DNA of 64,000 bases from Iodidimonas sp. SYSU 1G8. Lineage in GTDB: Bacteria > Pseudomonadota > Alphaproteobacteria > SMXS01. Made by a program: the position numbers and the translations under genes. How positions within the stretch are numbered: position 1 is the first letter of the stretch; each line of letters begins with the position of its first letter. Below, in pieces: positions 46,656 to 63,785 of this stretch. The notes below the pieces were generated by a model. That model was not told the DNA's origin, searched no databases, and worked only from the letters and a program-made list of their open reading frames with translations. The stretch is taken from NCBI RefSeq assembly GCF_039655775.1, contig NZ_JBBYXJ010000001.1:806001-870000 (forward strand), given 5' to 3'.

Positions 46656-47912
46656 CTAATCCTTGTTGATCTCGTCGAACGTGATCCAGAGTTCCTTCAA
46701 CCCGCGCAAGCACAGATGCGGGTGATGCTCGAAGCTGTTACGGCTGCTCGCATAGCCCAGATTGCCCATGCGCGCCAGGATGGCCTCGAACGACGCGATC
46801 ATCTCGTAGCGGGCAAGCTGTGCCCCGAGGCAGTGATGGATTCCGGCCCCGAACGCCAGATGCGCGCCCGCATTGCCGCGGCAGACATCGAGGCGTTCGG
46901 GCTCCGCGAACTTCGCCCCGTCGCGGTTGGCGGCGGCATAGCGCAGCATCACCCGCGCTCCTTTGGGAAGGGGGAAGCCGCCCAGTTCGGTGTCTTCCTT
47001 GACGATGCGGAACAGCCCCTGCACCGCGGATTCGAGCCGCAGCGTCTCCTCGACGAAGGTCGGAATGCGGGCCGGGTCCTCGCGCAGGATGCGCTGCTGT
47101 TCCGGATTGTCGATCAGCAGGGTCATGCCCGCCGCGATGGAGTTGGTGGTGGTCTCGTTGCCGGCGACCAGCACCTGGGAGATGATCGACAGCAACTCGC
47201 CATTGTTCAGCGGCTGACCGTCGTCGTCCCTCACCTCGAGCAGCGCCGACAACAGGTCATCGCGCGGGCTCTCGCGGCGCTCATCGAGGGCGGCGACGAA
47301 ATAGCGCTGGAATTCCAGCACCTTCCGCGCGCTGTCCACCCACTGGTCGTCGCTGAGCATGAGCCCGAGCGGCGCCACCGAGGCATCGGACCAGATCTTG
47401 AACTTCGGCGCGTCCGCGCGCGGCACGCCGAGCTGGTCGGCGATCACGTAGAGCGGCACCGGCACGGCGAATTCATGGATCAGCTCGACCTCGCCGCGGC
47501 CGATGAACTTGTCGATCAGCATGTTCGCGATCTCGTCCATGTAGGGCTTCATCGCCCGGACGCGCTTGGGCGTGAACGCGTAGTCGACCATCTTGCGATA
47601 GCGCGTGTGGCTGGGCGGATCGTTGGTCACCATGGTGTTGACCTTGGGCCAGCCCTGCGCCTCGATTTCCTTCACTTCCGGCGGCGGCGCGCGCATCTCG
47701 GCGGGCGCCTGGCTGCCGATGTTGGAGAAAACATCGGTGCGGCGGATGGCTTCCATCAGGAGGTCGTAGCGGGTGACGATGTGGACTTTCAGGTGCGGGT
47801 CGAAATAGACCGGCGCCTGGTCGCGCAGTACGTCGTAATAGTCGTAGGGGTTCTCCTGAACCTCCAGATGGGCAAGGCTGCGGTCGCCTGGCGCGCCCGT
47901 TACGGCATCCAT
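46656..47912 (-). CDS. cytochrome P450
   Basis: A 418-residue soluble bacterial P450. The heme thiolate is Cys361 in FGAGIHHCLGAQLAR, the K-helix ExxR is in EETLRLES, and the I-helix oxygen motif is AGNETTT. It hydroxylates a hydrophobic substrate using a ferredoxin and reductase not encoded next to it. Coupling to an alcohol dehydrogenase suggests hydroxylation followed by oxidation to the carbonyl. Confidence 0.93.
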   Translation of the reverse strand: MDAVTGAPGDRSLAHLEVQENPYDYYDVLRDQAPVYFDPHLKVHIVTRYDLLMEAIRRTDVFSNIGSQAPAEMRAPPPEVKEIEAQGWPKVNTMVTNDPPSHTRYRKMVDYAFTPKRVRAMKPYMDEIANMLIDKFIGRGEVELIHEFAVPVPLYVIADQLGVPRADAPKFKIWSDASVAPLGLMLSDDQWVDSARKVLEFQRYFVAALDERRESPRDDLLSALLEVRDDDGQPLNNGELLSIISQVLVAGNETTTNSIAAGMTLLIDNPEQQRILREDPARIPTFVEETLRLESAVQGLFRIVKEDTELGGFPLPKGARVMLRYAAANRDGAKFAEPERLDVCRGNAGAHLAFGAGIHHCLGAQLARYEMIASFEAILARMGNLGYASSRNSFEHHPHLCLRGLKELWITFDEINKD

Positions 47913-50832: not shown

Positions 50833-51198
50833 ATGAGCAATACGAAAATCGTCGAGGATTTCATCGCCGCCTGGAACGCGAACGACATCGACCGCGCCTG
50901 CGACATGATGGCCGAGGACATCTTCTATCACAACATCCCCATGACCCCGGTGACGGGCCGCGAGGCGGCGCGCGCCATGCTGAAGGCGATGGGCCCGCTG
51001 ACCGACGTGAACTGGGAGCTGCTCGCCATCGCCGAGAATGGCGAGGCGGTGCTGACCGAGCGCGTCGACCGCATGACCATGGGCGGCAAGAAGGTCGCCA
51101 TTCCGCTGATGGGCATCTTCCGCATCCGGAACGGCGAGATTTATGAGTGGAAGGACTATTTCGACCTGGGCGACTTCCAGCGCCAGATGGCGGGGTAA
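50833..51198 (+). CDS. SnoaL-like / limonene-epoxide-hydrolase-like NTF2-fold protein
   Basis: A 121-residue NTF2-fold protein. Residues such as FIAAWNANDIDRACDMMAEDIFYHNIPM and the later ERVDRMTMGGKKVAIPLMGIFRIRNGEIYEWKDYFD match the limonene-1,2-epoxide hydrolase-like group. A preceding GGGGAGGA is a strong ribosome site for ATG 50833. A truncated copy of this gene lies about 400 bp downstream (51607-51711). It is overlapped by the next gene in the form TAATG. Confidence 0.88.
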   Translation: MSNTKIVEDFIAAWNANDIDRACDMMAEDIFYHNIPMTPVTGREAARAMLKAMGPLTDVNWELLAIAENGEAVLTERVDRMTMGGKKVAIPLMGIFRIRNGEIYEWKDYFDLGDFQRQMAG

Positions 51199-51590
51199 TG
51201 GACGAAGATGACCGCGTCTTGACGATTGATGACTATTTCGATCAGCCGCTGAAAGGCGTCGCTGAATATCGAGGTCGCCCGCATTATTATAATCGTCAGT
51301 TCGACCGCGAGACCGATGCATATCTGGACGTCTTTATTTTGACGCCCCTTGATGCCGAGGCATTCGAACTTGCCATGGCTGCTTGGGGTATCTGGCTTGA
51401 TTGGAAAATGGCGTTCCGTCGCGGTGAAGTTCCTGCGAACTCCCACCCGCCGCATGAGCCGGAAACATCTTCATACGGCCAGCTAACCCGTGACTTTTCC
51501 AAGTATGTTGAACAGAACCAAGGCTCGTCTTTTGAAGCGAAGGGCGTCATGGACAGCAATACAGACCGCGTACGGTGGTTGACAGTCTAA
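51198..51590 (+). CDS. hypothetical protein
   Basis: A 130-residue soluble protein I do not recognise. It starts at the ATG of TAATG closing the SnoaL-like gene, so translation may be coupled. Notable features are an aromatic N-terminal segment (TIDDYFDQPLKGVAEYRG), RPHYYNRQF, and a middle with WGIWLDWKMAF. Codon use is visibly less GC-rich than in neighbours. It lies between the intact SnoaL gene and its truncated copy, which suggests it came in with a duplication or insertion event. Confidence 0.65.
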   Translation: MDEDDRVLTIDDYFDQPLKGVAEYRGRPHYYNRQFDRETDAYLDVFILTPLDAEAFELAMAAWGIWLDWKMAFRRGEVPANSHPPHEPETSSYGQLTRDFSKYVEQNQGSSFEAKGVMDSNTDRVRWLTV

Positions 51591-52712: not shown

Positions 52713-53168
52713 ATGGCCGATACGAGATCGCCCGAGCAGCGGCGAAAGATTATGCAGTCGGTAGGCACTGTTGATACGGGTGCCGAACTGGCTGTGCGCC
52801 GCCTCTTGTTTCGGATTGGCTATCGCTATCGCCTGCACAAAACCGGGCTTCCGGGCCGACCTGACATCGTTTTCCCGCGAAAGAAAAAGGCGATCTTCGT
52901 ACATGGATGCTTCTGGCATAGTCACGATTGTTCAAAGGGGCGACCGCCAAAATCCAAGCTAGATTACTGGGGGCCGAAGCTGGAGCGCAACCGCGAACGT
53001 GACCGGCAAAACATTGAGGATTTGCACGCTCTCGGATGGGATGCACTGGTTGTCTGGCAATGCGAGATCAAAGACAGCGAAGCGTTGGCAAAACGTCTTG
53101 TCGCCTTCCTGAGTAAAATCCGATCGACACGATTGGTCGAATCGTCTAGCTTTGCCTCAGGGAGTTAA
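52713..53168 (+). CDS. vsr: very short patch repair (Vsr) endonuclease
   Basis: A 151-residue Vsr-family T/G mismatch endonuclease. Key motifs are present: RSPEQRRKIMQSV at the N terminus, the metal-binding Asp in GLPGRPDIVFP, the FVHGCFWHSHDC zinc/histidine centre and YWGPKLERNRERD. It nicks at T:G mismatches made by deamination of 5-methylcytosine, guarding the partner methylase's sites. It is followed 5 bp later by the methyltransferase gene. A TTG at 52701 could add four residues. Confidence 0.95.
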   Translation: MADTRSPEQRRKIMQSVGTVDTGAELAVRRLLFRIGYRYRLHKTGLPGRPDIVFPRKKKAIFVHGCFWHSHDCSKGRPPKSKLDYWGPKLERNRERDRQNIEDLHALGWDALVVWQCEIKDSEALAKRLVAFLSKIRSTRLVESSSFASGS

Positions 53169-53173
53169 GATGC

Positions 53174-54520
53174 ATGTCAGGAAGACCGATTGGAATCGAC
53201 CTGTTCGCAGGTGCTGGGGGAATGTCGCTGGGGTTCGAACAGGCCGGGTTCGACGTGGTTGCGGCTATCGAAATCGACCCAATTCATTGCGCCGCCCATA
53301 AATTCAATTTCCCCGACACAGTTGTCATTCCGCGCTCAGTCGTTGGCCTGTCAGCTGCGGACGTCCGCAAGCATGCTGGTATCGGTGACAAGGAAATAGA
53401 CTGCGTCTTCGGCGGGCCACCCTGTCAGGGCTTCTCGATGATCGGGCAACGTTCCTTTGAGGATCCACGTAATTCTCTCGTTTTGGAATTCGTGAGGCTC
53501 GTTGCCGAACTGGACGCTAAGACCTTCGTGTTCGAGAACGTGAAGGGGCTTACTGTCGGCAAACAGCGCAATTTTCTCGGGGAGCTTGTCGCTGAGTTCC
53601 ACCGCGTCGGATATGAGGTTCGCATACCTTGGTCCGTCCTCGATGCCGCCAATTATGGGACGCCGCAACACCGCGAACGTCTCATCCTGATTGGCGCGCG
53701 CAAAGGTGCTAAAATCCCTTCCTATCCGGCGCCGCTCTTCAGCGCAGCTGACGGCAAGCGCGCGATTGCCGGGCTCGCGCTCGGGCCGACGGTAGTAGAT
53801 GCTATCGGAGACTTGCCGGATGCCGATAAGTTTTCCACGCTACTAGACAGCGACACCGTCCGCACGACGAGCTATGGCGATCCTTCCGCCTATGCCGCCG
53901 AAATGCGCTGCCTCACTAACAATGCATGGCATTTCGGTTATATGCGCGATTGGTCGCCTTCAATCATGACGTCAAGCGCGCGCACCATCCACACCGATGT
54001 TTCCCGTCGCCGCTTCTCCGAGACAGCGCCGGGTAGAGTCGAGCCGATCAGCCGCTTTTACAAACTGTCGCCTGTGGGCTTGTCCAACACGCTACGAGCA
54101 GGGACAGACGGTGCGCGCGGTGCATTCACAAGCCCGCGTCCGATCCATTTCAGTCACGACCGTTGCGTCACCGTGCGCGAAATGGCTCGCCTTCATGGCT
54201 TTCCAGACTGGTTCCGTTTGCATTCGACGAAATGGCACGGTGCACGACAGATCGGGAACTCGGTGCCGCCGCCTCTGGCACGGGCCATCGCCTCTGCCGT
54301 AATGAAGGCTCTTAACGCTAAGCCTAAGCGTCCAGAGGGGACGTTACAGCTCGGCGATCCCTCGCTTCTCTACCTGGAGATGTCGGAGGCAGCTGAGCAC
54401 TTCGGCGTGGAGCCGCCTATTTCGCGCCGGGACCGGAAGAGCGGCGCAAAAAAGCGTAAACAGCATGAAATAGAGGCCGAGCGCCTCGGCTTAAAGGTGG
54501 TGAGCGGTGGACGGCGATAA
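53174..54520 (+). CDS. dcm: C5-cytosine DNA methyltransferase
   Basis: A 448-residue cytosine-5 methyltransferase. Motif I is IDLFAGAGGMSLGFEQAG, motif IV is GGPPCQGFS with catalytic Cys84, motif VI is FVFENVKGL, motif VIII is QHRERLILIGAR and motif X is GNSVPPPLA. The target-recognition part is in residues 215-330. An unusual C-terminal tail of about 70 basic-acidic residues follows motif X (SRRDRKSGAKKRKQHE). It overlaps the next gene by 14 bp. The recognition sequence cannot be read from the protein. Confidence 0.96.
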   Translation: MSGRPIGIDLFAGAGGMSLGFEQAGFDVVAAIEIDPIHCAAHKFNFPDTVVIPRSVVGLSAADVRKHAGIGDKEIDCVFGGPPCQGFSMIGQRSFEDPRNSLVLEFVRLVAELDAKTFVFENVKGLTVGKQRNFLGELVAEFHRVGYEVRIPWSVLDAANYGTPQHRERLILIGARKGAKIPSYPAPLFSAADGKRAIAGLALGPTVVDAIGDLPDADKFSTLLDSDTVRTTSYGDPSAYAAEMRCLTNNAWHFGYMRDWSPSIMTSSARTIHTDVSRRRFSETAPGRVEPISRFYKLSPVGLSNTLRAGTDGARGAFTSPRPIHFSHDRCVTVREMARLHGFPDWFRLHSTKWHGARQIGNSVPPPLARAIASAVMKALNAKPKRPEGTLQLGDPSLLYLEMSEAAEHFGVEPPISRRDRKSGAKKRKQHEIEAERLGLKVVSGGRR

Positions 54521-55340
54521 GCTGGCAAAAACGAAGCGAGGCACAACGACGGCTCAGCCGCCACCGAACCGCTACAAGATACTCATTGATCGCATTTTCT
54601 TCCGGCACTGGTCGGAGGGCACTACCGAATTCGAGTTTGCCCGTGACGAACTCGAAAGCGCGGCTGCCGAACTCGAAATGAAGCTTCCCAAAAACCTAGG
54701 CGATGTTCTCTATGCCCTGCGTTTCCGGATCGGGTACCCCGACAGCATTGTCGCCACTCAACCCGACGGGCGTGAGTGGGTAATCGAAGGCGCAGGCCGC
54801 GCCCGCTATCGCTTTCGGCTCGTGAGGGCGATCCGAATTCACCCCAACCCCAATCTCGCCCGCACCGCCATACCAGACGCGACGCCCGAGCTAATTCGGG
54901 CCTATGCTCTCGACGACGAGCAAGCGCTGCTGGCCATCGTTCGATACAATCGCCTTATCGATACGTTTCTCGGTATTACGACTTACAGTCTACAGAACCA
55001 TCTACGCACGACGGTGCGGGGGATCGGGCAGATCGAGATCGACGAACTATATGTAGGCCTCGACAAGTACGGATGTCATTTCGTAGTTCCAGTTCAGGCC
55101 AAGGGCGGCAAGGACCAGATTGGCGTCGTGCAAACCACCCAAGACGTAAAGTTTGTCGAGCAAAAGTTCCCCGGTATGCGCTGTCGAGCCGTGTCCGCCC
55201 AGTTTATGGACGATGGCGTCGTCGCTCTATTCGAGCTGACGCTGCAGGAAGATGAGATCAAAGTCGTGGAGGAGCGGCATTACAAGCTCGTACCAGCGGG
55301 CGAACTCAACCCGGACGCCATTCGAAGCTACCGATCCTAA
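54507..55340 (+). CDS. putative restriction endonuclease with QxK-type site
   Basis: A 277-residue protein, probably the cutting partner of the overlapping methyltransferase. The start is GTG 54507 inside the last codons of dcm. A candidate PD-(D/E)xK site of the Mrr-like variant is seen: EIDELYVG with Asp179, then a hydrophobic strand HFVVPVQAKGG with Gln197-Ala-Lys199. The N-terminal 90 residues contain a region like a small DNA-binding or wHTH part (ARDELESAAAELEMKLPKNLGDVLYALR). I know no named family; the assignment rests on these motifs and on context. Confidence 0.65.
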   Translation: MDGDKLAKTKRGTTTAQPPPNRYKILIDRIFFRHWSEGTTEFEFARDELESAAAELEMKLPKNLGDVLYALRFRIGYPDSIVATQPDGREWVIEGAGRARYRFRLVRAIRIHPNPNLARTAIPDATPELIRAYALDDEQALLAIVRYNRLIDTFLGITTYSLQNHLRTTVRGIGQIEIDELYVGLDKYGCHFVVPVQAKGGKDQIGVVQTTQDVKFVEQKFPGMRCRAVSAQFMDDGVVALFELTLQEDEIKVVEERHYKLVPAGELNPDAIRSYRS

Positions 55341-55680
55341 ACGGACGAATTATCCATATATCGTGATTAATGTTATAACTCACCCTCATCACATGAAATA
55401 TGAGTAAGGAATTTAACAAGTATTTTTAAATACCATTTTCACTAATCAAGAATTCAAATAAATACCCAAGGATATACGAATCAATCCCAGAACTAAATGA
55501 TGTTCGACAGCCTGGCGTTAGCGCGGAATCCCTGACGCCGTATTTCTCAATCCGAGAATGGGTCAATGAAATCGTCAAACCGATTCGCAGCTATCTTTCT
55601 GAAAAAAATAGATTGCTTATTAGGATTGCCTCTCGTTAACTTAGATTAGTGCGGTCAATAATACGGCCTAGAGGACTTAT
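55341..55680 (+). other. AT-rich spacer in the defence island
   Basis: A 340-bp gap, far richer in A/T than anything else in the window. No start-bearing gene is visible. It contains a possible promoter for the ATPase gene and an open frame of 68 codons without start (55430-55639). It probably marks a join between two acquired modules. Confidence 0.6.
55430..55639 (+). pseudogene. possible gene remnant
   Basis: A stop-free stretch of 68 sense codons plus ATA, bounded by TAA stops (55427-55429 and 55637-55639), without an ATG, GTG or TTG near its beginning. Its translation looks protein-like, with segments such as VSAESLTPYFSIREWVNE and IVKPIRSYLSE, and no low-complexity repeats. It could be the 3' end of a decayed gene. 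Chance openness in AT-rich DNA is less likely but not excluded. Confidence 0.3.
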
Positions 55681-57030
55681 ATGGAAGACGATACACTCGG
55701 CCAAAACGAAATCGACGCAACGCCGACGAAGGGTTTTTTTATCGACATGCTGACGCGGGACATCCCGCTCGATCAAGCCATCCTCGACCTGGTCGACAAC
55801 TCAGTGGATGGCGCGAAGGCCATGCGTGCGCAGCTAGGCGGCAACTTCTCTGACCGCTGGGTCAAGATGACGTTCGACGCAGATCACTTCAGCATCATCG
55901 ACAATTGCGGTGGATTCGGAAAGGACGCAGCTAAAAAGTATGCGTTCAAGTTTGGCAGGCCCGACAGTGCCGTGCGGACCCCGCATTCGATCGGCCAATT
56001 CGGCGTCGGCATGAAGCGCGCTCTGTTCAAATTCGGTCGACATTTCGTCGTTCGGTCCGCTACGACCGATGAAAGTTGGGAAGTTGAGGTCCCCGTAGAT
56101 GGATGGGAAAGTGAACCTGGCTGGCATTTCCCGATCGCCGATATCGATGGTGACAGCGCCGTTTCAACCGCATCGCCGGGCACTGAGATCATTGTGACCC
56201 AGCTGCGAGCAGAGGTTAGTTCCCGCTTCTCCCTTACGACTTTCCGTAACACCATATTCGAATTGATTAAATCTAAGCATCGTCAATTCATCGCCGAAGG
56301 GCTTTCCATTTCCGTAAACGGGCATCATGTCGATGCCACTAGCCTCCACTTGCTGACCAATGACGGCCTCATCCCCGGCACAGACAATCTGACTTTTAAA
56401 GACAAGGACAAGGCGCAGGTCGATGTGCGGATAATTGTTGCGGTCGGCCCATCGTCACCGCGAAAAGCAGGCTGGTACGTCGTCTGCAACGGCCGTGTCA
56501 TCCTCGAAGCAGATCGCTCACCCGTTACGGGATGGGGCTTGGTTGAAGAAGCAGCCAATACGACTCTGATACCTTCATACCACAATCAATATGCGCGCTT
56601 TCGCGGTCTCGTTTTCTTCGATTCAGAGGATTCATCGCAGGTTCCTTGGAATACGACTAAGACTAGCGTCGACCAAGATAATAAGTTTTGGCAAGCCGCC
56701 TTCGTCCGAATGACTGAGATGATGCGACCAGTCATTAATTTCCTTAATGAGCTGGACGCAGACATCGACGAATATTCTCGTTGGGAAAGCCCTCTCGCCA
56801 AATTCATCGAAAAGGCGCGGATGGTAGCGCCAGATTCGTTACACGCAACGGTGACTTTCAAAGCACCGGCACGCTCGGCTTTTGTAAAAGGCCCGAAGAC
56901 CATCAAAATACAGTATTCGAGGCCAGTCGAAGACGTCGAATTACTACAAGAGGCGCTCGATGTGCATACGGCTAAGGCAGTCGGAGAAGCCACCTTCGAC
57001 GCCATTCTCAAACGGCAGAAGCGCGGATGA
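55681..57030 (+). CDS. GHKL ATPase, MORC/MutL/HSP90-like
   Basis: A 449-residue protein with an N-terminal GHKL ATP-binding domain: N-box LDLVDNSVDGA (33-44), G1 box IIDNCGGFG (72-80) and G2 box SIGQFGVGMKRALFK (103-117). At the usual catalytic Glu position an Asp (Asp36) is seen. A MutL-like transducer region follows (NGRVILEAD, FRGLVFFDSEDSSQVPWNTTKTSVD) and a helical C terminus. This is the type of ATPase noted near restriction-modification genes in prokaryotes. It overlaps the next gene by ATGA. Confidence 0.9.
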   Translation: MEDDTLGQNEIDATPTKGFFIDMLTRDIPLDQAILDLVDNSVDGAKAMRAQLGGNFSDRWVKMTFDADHFSIIDNCGGFGKDAAKKYAFKFGRPDSAVRTPHSIGQFGVGMKRALFKFGRHFVVRSATTDESWEVEVPVDGWESEPGWHFPIADIDGDSAVSTASPGTEIIVTQLRAEVSSRFSLTTFRNTIFELIKSKHRQFIAEGLSISVNGHHVDATSLHLLTNDGLIPGTDNLTFKDKDKAQVDVRIIVAVGPSSPRKAGWYVVCNGRVILEADRSPVTGWGLVEEAANTTLIPSYHNQYARFRGLVFFDSEDSSQVPWNTTKTSVDQDNKFWQAAFVRMTEMMRPVINFLNELDADIDEYSRWESPLAKFIEKARMVAPDSLHATVTFKAPARSAFVKGPKTIKIQYSRPVEDVELLQEALDVHTAKAVGEATFDAILKRQKRG

Positions 57031-57998
57031 CGGATAGTTTTCGTCGTATTGATTATTCCATTCGGCCGGCCAAGCACGCGGAACGTCGCATGCTGTGCGA
57101 CATCTTTCGAAAGCTCGCGGCCTTTGAGCCGGTCGAAAACTATCGCTATGTGGGTTTCGGGTCGGTCTGGTTCGCCGATTTCACGCTGTTTCACCGTGCG
57201 CTGGGCATCAGGAACATGCTGTCGATCGAGCAGGCTGTCAGTTCCAAGGATAGATTCGAAGCCAACAAGCCGTTCAATCTCCACATCGACTTTCGTATGT
57301 CGACGCAAGCGCTTCCTGAAATGGGATACGAGCGACGGCAGTTCATTTGGTTAGACTACGACGATCCGCTGTCGCCCGAAATGCTGCACGATGTGGCGAT
57401 CATCGCCACAAGAGCTCGGTCGGGAACGGTTCTGGTCGTCTCCTTACAGTGCCATCGAGCGCGCGAAATCGCAGAGGCCGACCGGGAATGCGCCCGGGAC
57501 GAAAGCGCTGCCACCGCAGAAGAGCGCTTCAGAACGAAGTTCGGCAATCGCATAGACCCCAACATCGGGAGGGAAGACCTTGTTGGATGGTCGTTCGGTA
57601 CACTCAGCCGCGGCATCGTCATATCGGAGATCGAAGCTTCGCTAGAAACGCGTCGATTGGCAAATCCCGCCGACCAAGTCACATTTACGAAAATTTGCGA
57701 CTTTGAGTATGAAGACGGCGCGAAAATGACGACTTTGGCGGTCGTATTTTGCAGCCCAGACGAGGAAGAACGACTGAGCATGTGCGGCTTCGACAATCTT
57801 GAGTTTGTCGAAGATCCCAACCTACCCGTTTACATTCCGACCCCTAAGTTGACGCCACGTGAGTTTCGCCAACTTGAGAGCCAGCTTCCGCTAGCTGAAG
57901 GCACTGAATTGGCCATAGGACACATCCCGCTAGGTGAAGCAAACAGTTTCAAACGATTGTATAGGTACTTCCCCAACTTCGTCGTCATAGAATCCTAG
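57027..57998 (+). CDS. unrecognised protein with Rossmann-like glycine motif
   Basis: A 323-residue protein that I do not recognise. The YRYVGFGSVWFADFTLF region (39-55) resembles a methyltransferase motif I. It is followed by IRNMLSIE (61-68), a strand ending in acidic Glu68, and FIWLDYDDP (106-114), a strand ending in acidic residues. The pattern suggests a Rossmann-fold, SAM-type enzyme, but there is no full methyltransferase signature. A later segment SLQCHRAREI may hold a catalytic or metal site. It is coupled to the GHKL ATPase by ATGA, so the two likely act together. Confidence 0.75.
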   Translation: MTDSFRRIDYSIRPAKHAERRMLCDIFRKLAAFEPVENYRYVGFGSVWFADFTLFHRALGIRNMLSIEQAVSSKDRFEANKPFNLHIDFRMSTQALPEMGYERRQFIWLDYDDPLSPEMLHDVAIIATRARSGTVLVVSLQCHRAREIAEADRECARDESAATAEERFRTKFGNRIDPNIGREDLVGWSFGTLSRGIVISEIEASLETRRLANPADQVTFTKICDFEYEDGAKMTTLAVVFCSPDEEERLSMCGFDNLEFVEDPNLPVYIPTPKLTPREFRQLESQLPLAEGTELAIGHIPLGEANSFKRLYRYFPNFVVIES

Positions 57999-59692: not shown

Positions 59693-60079
59693 TCAGAACC
59701 CCGAGACGCCCGGAATGGCGAAGGGATTCTTCGGCTTCTTCGGCGGCTCCACCAGCTGCACCAGCACGTCGTCGCCTTCGACTTTCGTCGGATAGACGGT
59801 GATCGGCAGCACGGCCGGCGGGCTCATCGCCTTGCCCGTTTCCAGGTCGAAATTGGCGCCGTGATGGGGGCAGACGATCTTGCCGGCACGGATGCGGCCG
59901 CCTTCAAGCGGCTTCTTTTCGTGCGAGCACTGGTTCTCGATCGCCTTGAACCCGCCATTGGGCATGTGGATGACGAGGACCTTGCGGTCCTCGACCTCGA
60001 AGCAGCGCGTCTTGCCCGGCTCCACGTCGCTCGTCTTGGCGACGATTCGGAAGGGAACCTCGTTGGTGGATGCGTCCAT
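59693..60079 (-). CDS. Rieske [2Fe-2S] ferredoxin
   Basis: A 128-residue Rieske protein. The cluster ligands are Cys51, His53, Cys70 and His73 (NQCSHEKKP and VCPHHGANF). The C terminus is longer than in small ferredoxins (PPKKPKNPFAIPG). It would pass electrons to the ring-hydroxylating oxygenases encoded next to it. A reductase gene is not in the window. It starts 8 bp after the first oxygenase gene. Confidence 0.93.
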   Translation of the reverse strand: MDASTNEVPFRIVAKTSDVEPGKTRCFEVEDRKVLVIHMPNGGFKAIENQCSHEKKPLEGGRIRAGKIVCPHHGANFDLETGKAMSPPAVLPITVYPTKVEGDDVLVQLVEPPKKPKNPFAIPGVSGF

Positions 60080-60087
60080 TATCTGCC

Positions 60088-61392
60088 TTAGGCGTCGTTT
60101 GCGTATACGCCGTTAATATAGTCCATCAGCGTCTTGTGCATATGGCGGATGCGGCGTTCCTGATGGCTGATGTGCAGGCCCTTGAACGCCGAGGAGTTGT
60201 TGCCCTTCTGCACATGCGGCAGGTTCACCGAATCCTGGTCGAGCACGAGACCGAGCGAGCGGCCGCCATGCTTGTGCTGCTCGTGATCGGGCAGCGGCGG
60301 GCGCGCCTGGCCCTTCTTGAGCCGGGCGTACATGGTGACGTCGTAATACATCTTGTTCGGGTCGCTCTCGTGCGGCCGCTGGCGGAACATCATCATCCGG
60401 TCGGCGAAGATGTTCAGCGTCAGGTTCGGGAAGATGTTGTAGTGGTAATCGTCGGTGAGCTGGTCGTCGTTCAGCTCGGAATAATCGACGCCGAGCGCTT
60501 CCTGGTTCTCGCGCTTGAACACCTGGATGGCGCGGCGCGCCTCGGAGACGCGGCCCTTGAACTCGTCCGGGTTCATGCCGAGCGCGGTCATCTTGCTGGC
60601 GATGATTTCCGGCACCTCGTCCAGATCCTCGCCGAGGCGCGGGCTGTAGGTGTGGAACGGCACCAGATAGCGGTTGTGACGCTCGTACAGGTCGATCTGC
60701 ACGTCGACGTCGTCATTGTCGTAGAGCAGCTCGGGGTGGATGCACTGGACGTGGTAGACCTCGTTGAAGGCGTCGACCGAGGTCTTCCAGTTGCAGTCCC
60801 ATTCCATGGTGACGTTGAGCGTCATCACCATCTTCTCGAAATGATAGGCCTCGAGATGGGCCGGAACGACGCCGAGATACTCCATCAGCGGCTCGGCGTC
60901 GGGGTTCAGATTGTACCAGACGAAGCCGCCCCAGACGTCGGTCCTGATTTCCTTGAGGCTGAGCACGTCCTTCGGACAGCCCTGGTGGAAATCCTCCTCG
61001 TCGGGCACGTTCACCAGGCGGCCGGTGAGATCGTATTCCCAGAAGTGATAGGCGCACTGCAGGGTGCGCGAGTTGCCGCACTTGTCGAACTTCACCTGGT
61101 TGCCGCGGTGATTGCAGACATTATAGAACGTCCGCGCCTTGCCATCCTCGCCGCGCACGATCAGCAGGGATTCATTGCCGATCTCGGTGGTGATGTAGTC
61201 GCCGGTGTCGGGGATCTCTTCCTCGCGGCAGCCGATGAGCCAGACCTTGGTCCACATGCGGTCCCATTCGAGCTGCATGAAGTCCCTGGAGATATAGCGC
61301 TCCTGCGGGATCAGCTCCGTGCCCAGATCGGGCTCGGGCGCCTTCTCGGCCACCGTTCCAACGCTATCCTTGATCCTGACGACCGCGACCAT
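60088..61392 (-). CDS. Rieske oxygenase alpha subunit, copy 1
   Basis: A 434-residue ring-hydroxylating oxygenase subunit. Rieske ligands: Cys93, His95, Cys113, His116. The mononuclear iron site is at Asp207, His214, His219 (VDAFNEVYHVQCIHPE), so Asp207 can bridge to the Rieske centre of the next subunit. It is paralogous to the 434-residue copy 2 next to it over its full length. A GGGAG site precedes ATG 61392. No beta subunit is present, so it may be a homotrimeric oxygenase; the substrate is unknown. Confidence 0.94.
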   Translation of the reverse strand: MVAVVRIKDSVGTVAEKAPEPDLGTELIPQERYISRDFMQLEWDRMWTKVWLIGCREEEIPDTGDYITTEIGNESLLIVRGEDGKARTFYNVCNHRGNQVKFDKCGNSRTLQCAYHFWEYDLTGRLVNVPDEEDFHQGCPKDVLSLKEIRTDVWGGFVWYNLNPDAEPLMEYLGVVPAHLEAYHFEKMVMTLNVTMEWDCNWKTSVDAFNEVYHVQCIHPELLYDNDDVDVQIDLYERHNRYLVPFHTYSPRLGEDLDEVPEIIASKMTALGMNPDEFKGRVSEARRAIQVFKRENQEALGVDYSELNDDQLTDDYHYNIFPNLTLNIFADRMMMFRQRPHESDPNKMYYDVTMYARLKKGQARPPLPDHEQHKHGGRSLGLVLDQDSVNLPHVQKGNNSSAFKGLHISHQERRIRHMHKTLMDYINGVYANDA

Positions 61393-61425
61393 ATGGGACT
61401 CCCGTAAAATTCTCGCAACCTGCGG

Positions 61426-61451
61426 ACGCCCTTTTTGCCGTCAAAGGGCGT
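61426..61451. promoter_or_regulatory. inverted repeat in the copy 1 oxygenase leader
   Basis: ACGCCCTTT and AAAGGGCGT form a perfect 9-bp inverted repeat with an 8-nt spacer, 34 bp before the copy 1 oxygenase start. There is an AT-rich stretch just upstream on the minus strand (61470-61505) which may hold the promoter. It may be an operator for a catabolic regulator; none is encoded here. Confidence 0.5.
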
Positions 61452-61540
61452 ATCGACGCAACCTCATTCATACACGACTTTTTTATATCGCAATATAATT
61501 ATTCTTCCGGCGGGCGGCGCCGCCGCCGCGCAAAGAAAAG

Positions 61541-61569
61541 GGGCGGCCGACCCGATGGCCGACCGCCCT
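61541..61569 (-). terminator. probable terminator after copy 2 oxygenase
   Basis: On the minus strand a GGGCGG/CCGCCC stem encloses a GC-rich inner part and is followed by CCTTTTCTTT. It lies 25 bp after the copy 2 oxygenase stop and would give the two oxygenase genes separate transcripts. Confidence 0.6.
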
Positions 61570-61593
61570 GATTCCTCGTGGCCTCCGAAGGAC

Positions 61594-62898
61594 TTACGCG
61601 TCGTTGGCGTAGACGCCGTTGACGTAGTCCATCAGGGTCTTGTGCATGTGGCGGATGCGGCGCTCCTGGCTGGAGATCCACAGGCCCTTGTAGGCGTCGG
61701 AGTTCATGCCCTTCTGCACGTGCGGCAGATTGACCGAATCCTGGTCGAGCACGAGGCCGAGCGAGCGCTCGCCATGGTTGACGTGCTCGTAATCGGGCAG
61801 CGGCGGGACCGGCTTGCCCTTGGGAATGGTCATGAACATCTGCACGTCGTAGTACATCTTGTTCGGGTCGCTCTCGTGCGGGCGCTGGCGGAACATCATC
61901 ATGGACTCGGCCATCACGTTCATCGTGATGTTCGGGAAGATCATGTAGTGGTAGTCGTCCGACAGCTGGTCGTCGTTGAACTCGGAATAGTCGTAGCCGA
62001 GCTTGTCGGCGTTCTCGCGCTTGTAGAGCTGAACCGCGCGGCGCACCTCGCCGACCCGGCCCTTGAAATCATCGGCGTTCATGCCGATCGCCGCCAGTTC
62101 CTCGGCCAGCGCTTCCGGCACTTCGTCGAGATCCTCGCCGAGACGCGGGCTGTAGGTCTTGAACGGCACCAGATAGCGGTTGTGACGCTCGTAGAGGTCG
62201 ATCTGCACGTCGACATCGTCGATGGTGTAGGACAGCTCGGGGTGAATGCACTGGACGTGATAGACCTCGTTGAACGCGTCGACGGCGGTCTTCCAGTTGC
62301 AGTCCCAGTTGACGGTGACGTTCATCACCATCGCCATGTTCTCGAAGTGGTAGGGGTCGAGATGCTTGGGGATCATGCCGAGATAGTCGGCCAGCGGCTC
62401 GGCGTCCGGGTTCAGGTTGAACCACACGAAGCCGCCCCAGGTTTCGGTCTTGATCGCCTTGAGACTGAGCTGGTCCTTGGGGCAGCCCTGGTGGAAATCC
62501 TCCTCGTCGGGGACGTTCACCAGACGGCCGGTGAGGTCATATTCCCAGAAGTGGTAGGCGCACTGCAGGGTGCGCGAGTTGCCGCACTGGTCGAACTTGA
62601 CCTGGTTACCGCGATGGTTGCAGACGTTGTAGAAGGTTCGCGCCTTGCCATCCTCGCCGCGCACGATCAGCAGCGATTCCTTGCCGATGTCGGTGGTGAT
62701 GTAGTCGCCGACCTCGGCGATTTCCTGCTCGCGGCAACCGACCAGCCAGACCTTGGACCACATGCGGTCCCACTCGAGCTGCATGAATTCCTTGGAGATA
62801 TAGCGCTCCTTCGGAATGATCTCGTTGCCCAGATCGGGCTCCGGCGCCTTCTCGGCGGGCGTATGGATACTTTCCTTGACGCGTGTGATCGCAACCAT
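61594..62898 (-). CDS. Rieske oxygenase alpha subunit, copy 2
   Basis: A 434-residue paralogue of copy 1 of identical length, with all ligands kept at the same positions (Cys93, His95, Cys113, His116; Asp207, His214, His219). Differences cluster in the N-terminal 40 residues and in the part covering residues 240-340, which includes substrate-pocket positions in this fold. The two presumably arose by tandem duplication and may take different substrates. It lies 44 bp after the enoyl-CoA hydratase gene. Confidence 0.94.
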   Translation of the reverse strand: MVAITRVKESIHTPAEKAPEPDLGNEIIPKERYISKEFMQLEWDRMWSKVWLVGCREQEIAEVGDYITTDIGKESLLIVRGEDGKARTFYNVCNHRGNQVKFDQCGNSRTLQCAYHFWEYDLTGRLVNVPDEEDFHQGCPKDQLSLKAIKTETWGGFVWFNLNPDAEPLADYLGMIPKHLDPYHFENMAMVMNVTVNWDCNWKTAVDAFNEVYHVQCIHPELSYTIDDVDVQIDLYERHNRYLVPFKTYSPRLGEDLDEVPEALAEELAAIGMNADDFKGRVGEVRRAVQLYKRENADKLGYDYSEFNDDQLSDDYHYMIFPNITMNVMAESMMMFRQRPHESDPNKMYYDVQMFMTIPKGKPVPPLPDYEHVNHGERSLGLVLDQDSVNLPHVQKGMNSDAYKGLWISSQERRIRHMHKTLMDYVNGVYANDA

Positions 62899-62942
62899 CA
62901 GTAACTCCTTCTGAACCTCGTTTCCCCAGATGGGGCAGCTAC

Positions 62943-63785
62943 TTACTCAGCAGCCTTGATCTCTTCCCTGAACTTCTCCGGCACGCCTTCGCGGCGAACT
63001 GCACGGGTTTCCATCTCGTAATTGTGCGCATGGCACATATGGTGCAGGGCGATGACCGTGTCCATGGTCGAGCGCTGGCCCATGTTGTCCTGTGCGACGT
63101 TTACCGCCTGTTTGGTTAACTTAAGCGCGAATGCCGGTTTTTCCGCAATTCTTTTCGCCATGGCAAGACAGAACTCTTCCAGCTCGGGCCGCGGCACCAC
63201 GTGATTGACCATGCCGAGACGGTGCGCTTCCTGCGCGCTCCACCAGTCGGCGGTGAACAGCAGCTCCTTGGCCTTGCGGATGCCGAGCTCGTAGGGATGG
63301 TTGAAATATTCCACGCCGCACACGCCCATGGCGACGACCGGGTCCATGAACTGGGCGTCGTCGCTGGCGATGATGATGTCGCAGATCCAGGCGAGCATCA
63401 GGCCGCCGGCGATGGTCTTGCCCTGGACCATGGCGATGGTCGGCTTGGGGAAGTCGCGCCAGCGGCGGCACATGCCGAGGAAGACTTCCTGCTCGAAGCT
63501 GTAGCGGCTGTGGACCCCGCCTTCCTTGGACGGCACCCACGTGCCGACGGCGTCGTCCACCGGACCGAAGCCGCGCAGGTCGTGGCCGGACGAGAAGTGC
63601 GGCCCCTCGCCGCCGAACAGCACGACCTTGACGTCCTCGTCCCGCGCGGCGAGATCGAAGCAGGCATTGAGGTCGTAGGTCAGGCGGCCGTTCTGCGCGT
63701 TCCGCTGCGCGGGCCGGTTCTGCATGATCCTGGCGATGTGCGGCGCCACGACTTCATAGGTCGCAGTCTCGAATTCCTTCTTCAT
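62943..63785 (-). CDS. enoyl-CoA hydratase/isomerase family protein
   Basis: A 280-residue crotonase-fold protein. The oxyanion-hole segments are EGPHFSSGHDLRGFG and GKTIAGGLMLAWICDIIIAS. It should act on a CoA thioester. The stretch at 63100-63165 uses AT-richer codons than its surroundings. It lies between the ALDH gene and the copy 2 oxygenase, and a 50-bp gap to the ALDH stop suggests one operon. Confidence 0.92.
   Translation of the reverse strand: MKKEFETATYEVVAPHIARIMQNRPAQRNAQNGRLTYDLNACFDLAARDEDVKVVLFGGEGPHFSSGHDLRGFGPVDDAVGTWVPSKEGGVHSRYSFEQEVFLGMCRRWRDFPKPTIAMVQGKTIAGGLMLAWICDIIIASDDAQFMDPVVAMGVCGVEYFNHPYELGIRKAKELLFTADWWSAQEAHRLGMVNHVVPRPELEEFCLAMAKRIAEKPAFALKLTKQAVNVAQDNMGQRSTMDTVIALHHMCHAHNYEMETRAVRREGVPEKFREEIKAAE

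What the first reader, a model, noticed from the sequence alone, without database searches (positions are those of the whole stretch)
52713..57998. Low-GC five-gene island: Vsr, C5-methylase, QxK nuclease, MORC-like ATPase and an unknown protein
Seen: five same-strand genes with tight overlaps (5 bp apart, 14-bp overlap, ATGA overlap), codon use less GC-rich than both flanks, and an AT-rich spacer splitting it into a three-gene restriction-modification core and a two-gene module. Known: MutL/MORC-like GHKL ATPases have been noted near prokaryotic cytosine methylases and Vsr-like nucleases by comparative genomics (Aravind and colleagues). Inference: the ATPase plus the 323-residue partner adds a second defence layer to a classical RM system, and that pair may not have been tested experimentally.
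Basis: partly seen in the sequence, partly recalled or inferred. Interest (0 to 1): 0.85.

Follow-up and report, generated by a model that had tools for sequence, protein, structure and literature searches.

The report
MORC-methylase defence pair beside restriction genes
Next to an ordinary DNA-cutting defence set, this bacterium carries two tightly linked genes, a relative of the MORC gene-silencing ATPases of animals and plants and a methyltransferase-like protein, which travel with a DNA cytosine methylase through bacteria and prophages, in some prophages without any recognisable cutting enzyme, so they may be an untested way to tell foreign DNA from self.

Summary
In detail: five same-strand genes at 52713-57998, low GC (54.4%, the window's minimum for that length), with the stated overlaps. 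They are Vsr, a C5-cytosine methylase (Dcm), a type II REase, a GHKL ATPase and a PF20553 ('Methyltransf_35', MT35) protein. The ATPase meets the published sequence definition of prokaryotic MORC. MT35 models as a class I SAM-methyltransferase. The two form a pair: 70 of 70 ATPase-anchored viral loci have MT35 directly downstream and 69 of 70 also a Dcm; the window's REase family is in 1 of 70. Among 14 sampled genomes of the window's class with this Dcm subfamily, 10 carry the REase, 3 the pair, and 1 (the window) both. A bare ATPase-MT35-Dcm cassette is in 47 of 5,426 E. coli genomes; in the two regions opened it fills the P2 prophage slot known for defence genes. Best reading: a 5mC-guided defence system whose effector is the MORC-MT35 pair, here joined to a complete Vsr-Dcm-REase system. 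MORC-restriction association was predicted in 2008; I did not find the MT35 partner, the nuclease-free cassette or the REase/pair contrast described in what I could search. Defence activity is inferred, not tested.

The parts
52713..53168 (+). Vsr endonuclease (very short patch repair family)
   Evidence: PF03852 5.4e-29, TIGR00632 2.6e-45
53174..54520 (+). C5-cytosine DNA methylase (Dcm), of the subfamily that in the class sample partners either this REase or the MORC-MT35 pair
   Evidence: PF00145 1.7e-65, PADLOC MTase_II PDLC03326 3.9e-180; PPCQGF at residue 82; subfamily gap 462 vs 254 bits
54507..55340 (+).
   Evidence: PADLOC REase_II PDLC03404 1.1e-135; no Pfam hit at E<=0.1 and no convincing PDB relative
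55341..55680 (.). AT-rich spacer (37% GC) between RM core and pair
   Evidence: promoter-like sites in the region not above shuffles
55681..57030 (+). MORC-family GHKL ATPase with S5 domain; N-box DLVDN (36-40), DNCGG (74-78), GQFGVG (105-110), MORC motif GWYVVCNGRVI (264-274)
   Evidence: HATPase_c_3 3.2e-10, phrog_20521 3.6e-74, AlphaFold2 pLDDT 89.7, VIA MORC3 Z 22.4, motif
57027..57998 (+). Methyltransf_35 (MT35) protein, class I SAM-methyltransferase fold
   Evidence: PF20553 7.9e-91, AlphaFold2 pLDDT 92.6, VIA 1wxw Z 14.8, Trm1 Z 14.4 over 210 residues

Best explanation
The last two genes encode the effector half of a small, mobile, methylation-guided defence system: MORC ATPase, MT35 and a C5-cytosine methylase. 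The Dcm marks the host's own DNA. The MORC dimer, together with MT35, engages DNA that lacks the mark and uses ATP-driven clamp closure to trap, loop or compact it, so that it is silenced or handed to a nuclease. MT35 most likely binds SAM and either reads the target site or methylates a protein or nucleic acid in that complex. In this window the module has joined a complete Vsr-Dcm-REase system, giving two effectors that could use one methylase mark. Shown: gene content, close pairing, near-constant Dcm linkage, predicted folds, purifying selection in one group of prophage cassettes, and position in a documented defence hotspot in two E. coli regions. Inferred: defence, recognition of unmethylated DNA, clamping, the role of MT35.
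For: (1) Pairing: of 40 MT35-anchored genome loci, 39 have the ATPase directly upstream (the miss, L028, is cut by its contig end; L044 holds only the ATPase's tail); of 70 ATPase-anchored viral loci, 70 have MT35 directly downstream. In 65 dereplicated loci the pair is always on one strand in this order, and 43 of 65 overlap by exactly 4 or 1 nt. Pair distances correlate strongly (Spearman 0.74), ATPase-Dcm weakly (0.12). (2) Dcm in 37 of 40 and 69 of 70 loci, on either side and either strand; 0 of 20 control C5-methylase neighbourhoods had the pair above 30 bits. (3) Effector swap: of 14 genomes with this Dcm subfamily among 373 sampled, 10 have the REase and no MT35, 3 the pair and no such REase found, 1 (the window) both. 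(4) Cassettes without a recognised nuclease: Pf phage PfAC20, and P2-like E. coli prophages between portal and replication genes (two regions); the cassette is in 45+2 of 5,426 genomes. That slot is a described defence hotspot (PMC9519451, passage) and holds other cargo in other phages. (5) Median dN/dS 0.03-0.06 for the three genes. (6) MORC motif in 37 of 38 and 69 of 70 homologues, against 10 of 514 other ORFs; MORC3/4/2 top the VIA list.
Against: No phage assay of this system exists in what I read. 36 of 38 ATPases have Asp where the GHKL general base is usually Glu (Glu is recalled), so turnover may be slow. Foldseek's own order puts Hsp90-family chains first and MORC2 at rank 42, and in the VIA list Hsp90 lies within 1 Z of MORC. 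Pairing is not universal among weaker ATPase relatives: in the phylum sample 5 of the 6 strongest ATPase matches (274 bits or more) have MT35, and the sixth, a longer form in G669, has a Dcm but no MT35; G143 (123 bits) and G622 (91 bits) show none in their flanks. Some pair loci carry another nuclease (HNH_2 type in 5 of 40, an ExK-like 300-residue protein in 3 of 40, a NgoMIV relative in L047, GmrSD in L035), and only 17 of 121 neighbouring ORFs were scanned, so absence of a nuclease is not shown in general. The REase-or-pair contrast follows two Dcm clades, so the 14 genomes are not independent. L033 and L181 have the pair without Dcm but with helicase genes.
Confidence: 0.55

Rival explanations
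1. Anti-restriction or self-marking cargo: in prophages the Dcm protects phage DNA from host restriction and the MORC-MT35 pair only helps methylation or packaging. The bacterial copies are domesticated leftovers.
For: All 70 ATPase-anchored loci come from a viral collection, which is biased by construction; the Pf and P2 cassettes contain a methylase and no known nuclease.
Against: The P2 slot is documented for defence genes. 40 loci come from genome contigs, many with Vsr and some with a restriction nuclease. A methylase alone would do for anti-restriction, yet MT35 is never missing beside the ATPase in the viral set, though that set was found through the ATPase.
Confidence: 0.15
2. Dedicated mismatch-repair helper: a MutL-like ATPase that supports Vsr in repairing T:G mismatches made by 5mC deamination.
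For: Vsr lies in 28 of 40 genome loci. E. coli MutL and Vsr are linked in very short patch repair (text of PMC2292703).
Against: Vsr was not found in 61 of 70 viral and 12 of 40 genome loci while the ATPase stays. 13 of 20 control C5-methylase neighbourhoods have Vsr without the pair. The shown fold rows are MORC, Hsp90, SMCHD1 and topoisomerases; MutL is not among the 50 rows, which does not exclude it.
Confidence: 0.08
3. Regulatory device: the pair senses methylation state and controls the RM genes or phage genes, like the proposed C5-MTase / HEF_HK / Response_reg_2 'two-component-like' sets.
For: Similar gene company (C5-methylase, Vsr, GHKL protein plus partner) is described in PMC8011034 (passages and section 8).
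Against: The partner matched only PF20553 in Pfam and no response-regulator family. No DNA-binding family was detected in either protein.
Confidence: 0.12
4. The pair is itself a nuclease-type restriction complex: MT35 or MORC carries an unrecognised nuclease active site and cuts DNA lacking the mark.
For: In the class sample the pair stands where the REase otherwise stands.
Against: MT35 models as a SAM-methyltransferase; no nuclease is among the 50 rows shown in either list, and there is no nuclease family hit in either protein.
Confidence: 0.1

Closest known systems
Prokaryotic MORC operons of Iyer, Abhiman and Aravind 2008 (PMC2292703)
   Same: GHKL+S5 ATPase with the GhXhhpXXRhl motif, beside cytosine methylase and Vsr; a minority of their neighbourhoods lack helicases (parts 1-3 of 4 of the text read).
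   Different: About 70% of theirs have an SFII helicase; the parts I read do not name an MT35-type partner or a methylase-plus-pair cassette without nuclease. Part 4, the figures and the additional file were not seen.
Type II RM with Vsr (Vsr-Dcm-REase)
   Same: First three genes of the island; Dcm with the same REase family, mostly with Vsr, stands without the pair in 10 sampled genomes.
   Different: Lacks the ATPase and MT35.
C5-MTase + HEF_HK + Response_reg_2 sets (PMC8011034)
   Same: C5-methylase, frequent Vsr, GHKL (HATPase_c_3) protein plus a regular partner.
   Different: Partner is a response-regulator-like protein, not PF20553.
VcSduA, Shedu with GHKL ATPase domain (PMC12137116, passages)
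   Same: A GHKL ATPase in an anti-phage protein, with activity shown by phage assay.
   Different: Single protein with a fused PD-(D/E)xK nuclease; no methylase partner mentioned in the passages.
MZA (MzaB GHKL ATPase)
   Same: Weak ATPase similarity (E 0.006 PADLOC, 7e-5 NCBIfam).
   Different: Far below its cut-off (21 vs 850 bits); no other Mza gene matched in the island.

Membership tests
Prokaryotic MORC (definition of PMC2292703) | GHKL ATP-binding motifs | tested here: met
   N-box DLVDN, DNCGG, GQFGVG in order (three motifs looked for); HATPase_c_3 over its cut-off
Prokaryotic MORC (definition of PMC2292703) | GhXhhpXXRhl motif in the S5 domain | tested here: met
   GWYVVCNGRVI; 37 of 38 and 69 of 70 homologues, background 10 of 514 ORFs. 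The pattern allowed any hydrophobic at the last position
Prokaryotic MORC (definition of PMC2292703) | MORC-like ATPase fold | tested here: met
   Best VIA rows MORC3 Z 22.4 (304 residues, 4.0 A), MORC4 22.0, MORC2 21.7; Hsp90 within 1 Z, so tied. Foldseek's order has Hsp90 first, MORC2 at rank 42
Methyltransf_35 (PF20553) | Match over the curated cut-off along the full length | tested here: met
   305 bits vs 27; residues 4-322, profile 2-308 of 309
Class I SAM-dependent methyltransferase | Fold | tested here: met
   predicted model: Z 14.8 to 1wxw, 14.4 to Trm1 over 210 residues
Class I SAM-dependent methyltransferase | SAM binding and methyl transfer | not testable with these tools
   Motif I-like G43 (108 of 117) and G45 (116 of 117), E68 (113 of 117), D110 (117 of 118) conserved; activity unknown
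Type II restriction-modification | Methylase and REase genes adjacent | tested here: met
Type II restriction-modification | Both act on one recognition sequence | not testable with these tools
   no specificity data
Shedu / paraMORC3 with nuclease | C-terminal PD-(D/E)xK nuclease domain on the ATPase | tested here: not met
   Pfam hits only HATPase families at E<=0.1
HEF_HK / Response_reg_2 set | Response_reg_2 partner gene | tested here: not met
   partner matches PF20553 only
MZA system | MzaB at cut-off with its companion genes | tested here: not met
   21.4 bits vs 850; no other Mza family in the five genes
Phage defence system | Reduces phage infection | not testable with these tools
   location and linkage only

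The most novel reading that the evidence does not exclude
MORC-MT35-Dcm is a restriction system without a restriction enzyme: the 5mC mark spares self DNA while a bacterial MORC clamp, directed by a methyltransferase-like partner, entraps and silences unmarked DNA. It would be a bacterial counterpart, and possibly the source, of the MORC / DNA-methylation silencing pathways of plants and animals.
Probability: 0.3. Interest if true: 0.92.

Novelty: new variant of a known kind. Interest (0 to 1): 0.72.

Why it matters
MORC ATPases silence transposons in plants and animals (abstracts in the listing), and their bacterial relatives have been predicted since 2008 to belong to restriction systems; the searches here showed no test of one. 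A compact three-gene form in P2-like E. coli prophages makes that directly testable with standard laboratory strains and phage panels. It would also give a function to PF20553, whose accession and name occur in none of the held papers.

Tried and rejected
Accessory to this REase: rejected as the general role, because only 5 of 40 genome loci and 1 of 70 viral loci have this REase family.

Any C5-methylase will do: weakened. Held-out partner Dcms (76, near-copies included) score a median of 469.5 bits, 71 of them at 422 or more, against a median of 125.5 and a maximum of 250.7 for 20 control C5-methylases. The other 5 of 76 (162-222 bits) fall in the control range, so the partners are mostly, not always, one subfamily.

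Vsr as the constant partner: rejected (9 of 70 viral loci).

Empty site: the upstream phosphoesterase was found in two relatives, but the downstream flank was not, so no junction could be drawn. Border repeats: only short two- or three-copy families. Promoter in the spacer: not above shuffles.

Target site of the Dcm: not predicted. The target-recognition region is only somewhat more variable than the N-terminal core (median identity 36% vs 42%).

Neighbour nucleases: 121 ORFs beside the modules of 44 loci were listed; 17 of them were run against Pfam or PADLOC. HNH_2 was shown by Pfam for L029 only; L032, L035, L052 and L058 are its phmmer cluster-mates.

Papers: searches; several list only a part (20 of 82, 20 of 45, 10 of 93), and the claim about PF20553 rests. 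Read in parts: PMC2292703 (parts 1-3 of 4) and PMC8011034 (passages and section 8). Read in passages only: PMC11878078, PMC12137116, PMC12907096, PMC9519451. The 2022 P2/P4 hotspot paper by Rousset and colleagues (recalled) did not show up and was not read; Furuta 2010 is not held. I cannot say whether this cassette is listed there. No preprints are held.

Rows dropped: L062-L064, L066 and L067 were left out as duplicates of contigs in L084-L153; of 107 loci with all three genes of sufficient length, 67 remain after joining MT35 at 80% identity, and 65 have coordinates for the arrangement counts. That set requires a Dcm; the unconditional counts are those. L001 and L003-L006 (genome search copies) are in no tally. 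In one search, L131 was left out because its MT35 frame is split in two, and only pairs with usable synonymous divergence were kept (16, 38 and 51 of 91). The 254-genome figure was not used, because many of those matches may be methylase alone.

Structure lists: MutL or nuclease folds absent from the 50 shown rows are not excluded.
Full report
Observation. The stretch has 54.4% GC, equal to the minimum of all same-length stretches at 50-base steps (median 64.1%), and GC3 of 0.59-0.66 against 0.79-0.93 for 11 of 12 flanking genes tested; the other, 51147-51590, is also low. The 340-bp spacer has 37% GC.

Identity. Gene 1 is Vsr, gene 2 a C5-cytosine methylase and gene 5 a PF20553 Methyltransf_35 protein. 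Gene 3 is a PADLOC type II REase. Gene 4 has a GHKL ATPase domain and matches the phage family phrog_20521 along its length.

The ATPase as a MORC. Iyer, Abhiman and Aravind (PMC2292703; parts 1-3 of 4 read) describe prokaryotic MORCs by the GHKL motifs and an S5-domain motif GhXhhpXXRhl. The window protein has GWYVVCNGRVI; 37 of 38 aligned homologues and 69 of 70 viral ones have the motif, against 10 of 514 other ORFs of at least 300 residues. The AlphaFold2 model (pLDDT 89.7) aligns best by VIA to MORC3, MORC4 and MORC2 (Z about 22), with Hsp90 within 1 Z. Foldseek's own order puts Hsp90 chains first and MORC2 at rank 42, so the fold alone does not decide; the motif does. In 36 of 38 homologues the N-box residue usually given as Glu (recalled) is Asp.

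MT35. The model (pLDDT 92.6) is a class I SAM-methyltransferase fold: 1wxw Z 14.8 over 163 residues and tRNA methyltransferase Trm1 Z 14.4 over 210. Motif-I-like G43 (108 of 117 sequences, near-copies included) and G45 (116 of 117), E68 (113 of 117), W108 (118 of 118) and D110 (117 of 118) are conserved, as are Y10, R13, K16, R20 and E279. The window sequence contains neither PP nor PC, so it lacks the motifs typical of DNA adenine/N4 and C5 methylases (motifs recalled), and its substrate is open.

The pair. A genome-contig scan with MT35 gave 40 loci: ATPase directly upstream in 39, the fortieth being cut by its contig end. A viral-contig scan from the ATPase side gave 70 loci: MT35 directly downstream in 70 of 70. 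These 70 fall into 36 clusters at 80% MT35 identity. In the 385-genome class sample, the three genomes with a strong ATPase match (544 bits or more) all have MT35, and the fourth MT35 genome is cut at the contig end. In 65 dereplicated loci the two genes are always on one strand in this order; 43 overlap by exactly 4 or 1 nt and 64 are at most 8 nt apart. Weaker relatives of the ATPase can lack MT35: in a phylum sample 5 of the 6 matches of 274 bits or more have it; G669 has a longer ATPase with Dcm and none, and G143 and G622 (123 and 91 bits) show none in the flanks fetched.

The methylase. A C5-methylase lies beside the pair in 37 of 40 genome loci and 69 of 70 viral loci. The four misses are L029 and L102, at contig ends with Vsr still present; L043, whose contig ends about 1.3 kb after MT35; and L033, which has a helicase with a PLD-like domain instead. 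L181, from the phylum sample, has a helicase, a NO VEIN-type domain and an N6/N4 methylase instead of Dcm. The Dcm is upstream on the same strand in 21, upstream opposite in 9, downstream same in 17 and downstream opposite in 18 of 65 loci, at a median of 46 nt from the pair. C5-methylases are not common enough for this by chance: 142 of 385 class genomes have any, with about 280 match segments in all (my sum of the column). None of 20 control C5-methylase neighbourhoods (about 6 kb on each side where the contig allowed) holds the pair above 30 bits, while 13 of 20 hold a Vsr. The 20 were picked by me from the list.

Two modules. The REase family of the window occurs in 7 loci with the pair: the window, L024, L025, L037, L054, L057 and L150. 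In these the REases are 53-81% identical, but the ATPases fall into three lineages 27-34% identical to each other, and in L025 and L150 the REase core points the other way. The closest ATPases to the window's (L021 73%, L022 67%) sit with a Dcm only about 40% identical and no such REase. Pair members share history (Spearman 0.74); ATPase and Dcm hardly do (0.12, permutation p 0.003). So the pair and the RM core appear to have been joined more than once.

Effector swap. Ten of the 14 have the REase next to the Dcm and no MT35 in the genome (one of the ten, L212, only a weak 85-bit REase match; another, G300, has a weak 35-bit GHKL match about 3 kb from its Dcm). Three have the pair and no such REase found (G326 only on a 3.9-kb contig). 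One, the window, has both. Counted naively, the chance that all three REase-less genomes fall among the four with the pair is 4/364, or 0.011 (my arithmetic). The Dcms form two clades, however, so these are not independent events. Other pair loci carry another nuclease: HNH_2 (L029 by Pfam; L032, L035, L052, L058 by similarity to it), an ExK-like 300-residue protein (my reading of its motif) in L053-L055, a NgoMIV relative in L047, and a GmrSD protein upstream in L035. Only 17 of 121 neighbouring ORFs were scanned, so I cannot say how many loci have no nuclease at all.

Minimal cassette. Pseudomonas phage PfAC20 carries ATP-binding protein, MT35 and cytosine methylase, with a 105-residue hypothetical ORF after them that has no PADLOC match; its authors list only a cytosine methyltransferase, as an incomplete system (PMC11878078, passages). 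In E. coli, P2-like prophages next to yegR/yegS carry exactly ATP-binding protein, O-methyltransferase and DNA cytosine methyltransferase between portal and replication endonuclease, in the one genome of each variant that I opened. The first variant is in 45 of 5,426 genomes at 99% identity or more, the second in 2 of 5,426; where it lies in the others was not checked. That position is described as the tin/old slot holding many defence systems (PMC9519451, passage), and other P2-like phages carry other cargo there, such as DUF4209, DUF4238 and VbhT proteins. Among 14 related viral copies, median dN/dS is 0.03 (ATPase), 0.04 (MT35) and 0.06 (Dcm) over the 16, 38 and 51 pairs with usable dS, so all three genes are under strong purifying selection there.

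Mechanism. The simplest reading is that Dcm marks self and the MORC-MT35 complex acts on DNA without the mark. A search-listing abstract (PMC8277788) says that C. elegans MORC-1 topologically entraps and condenses DNA. Iyer and colleagues proposed DNA looping for the bacterial MORCs. I therefore favour clamp-like trapping or compaction over cutting, and give MT35 a SAM-dependent reading or modifying role. None of these steps is shown here.

Novelty. MORC-RM association is known as a prediction (2008). PF20553 and Methyltransf_35 occur in none of the 5.39 million held papers. PADLOC gives no hit for the ATPase or MT35 of the window, PfAC20 and E. coli beyond weak MzaB matches. In the listings of searches, some of them cut short, I saw no paper that tests a bacterial MORC next to a cytosine methylase. 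Part 4, the figures and the additional file of the 2008 paper, and the main P2 hotspot paper, were not seen. I rate it a new variant of a known kind.

Noticed in passing
L027 6745-8499, L036 6616-8337, L041 6372-8120, L184 8559-10232: A second, longer GHKL protein (557-584 residues) beside the Dcm; the three in L027, L036 and L041 also have the MORC motif. L184 has it with Dcm and no MT35.
   Followed up: partly
L053 12749-13651, L054 3608-4537, L055 12737-13639, L066 12744-13661, L067 12438-13340: A family of about 300 residues (no Pfam or PADLOC hit for the L053 copy) with an ExK-like stretch, beside the module: a possible undescribed restriction nuclease.
   Followed up: partly
L035 8118, L039 1230, L043 8109: A conserved gene of about 170 codons just upstream of the ATPase; no Pfam family found for the L043 copy.
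   Followed up: partly
L095, L103, L104, L106, L118, L120, L123, L145: MT35 and Dcm converge tail to tail with a 33-50 nt coding overlap, kept across divergent viral loci.
   Followed up: no
L033 3006-16798: Prevotella locus: the pair beside a ResIII helicase with PLD-like domain, a 711-residue unknown, a Fic protein and a weakly STAND-like protein, no Dcm.
   Followed up: partly
L181 7780-15352: The pair diverging from a SNF2-type helicase, NO VEIN C-terminal domain protein and N6/N4 DNA methylase set.
   Followed up: partly
window 51147-51590: Low-GC ORF (53%, GC3 0.53) without Pfam hit, upstream of the phosphoesterase; perhaps another foreign gene.
   Followed up: partly
window 46656-47912, 59693-63785: Cytochrome P450-like, Rieske-type oxygenase and enoyl-CoA hydratase-like genes (recognised by eye, not searched), suggesting a catabolic region around the island.
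   Followed up: no
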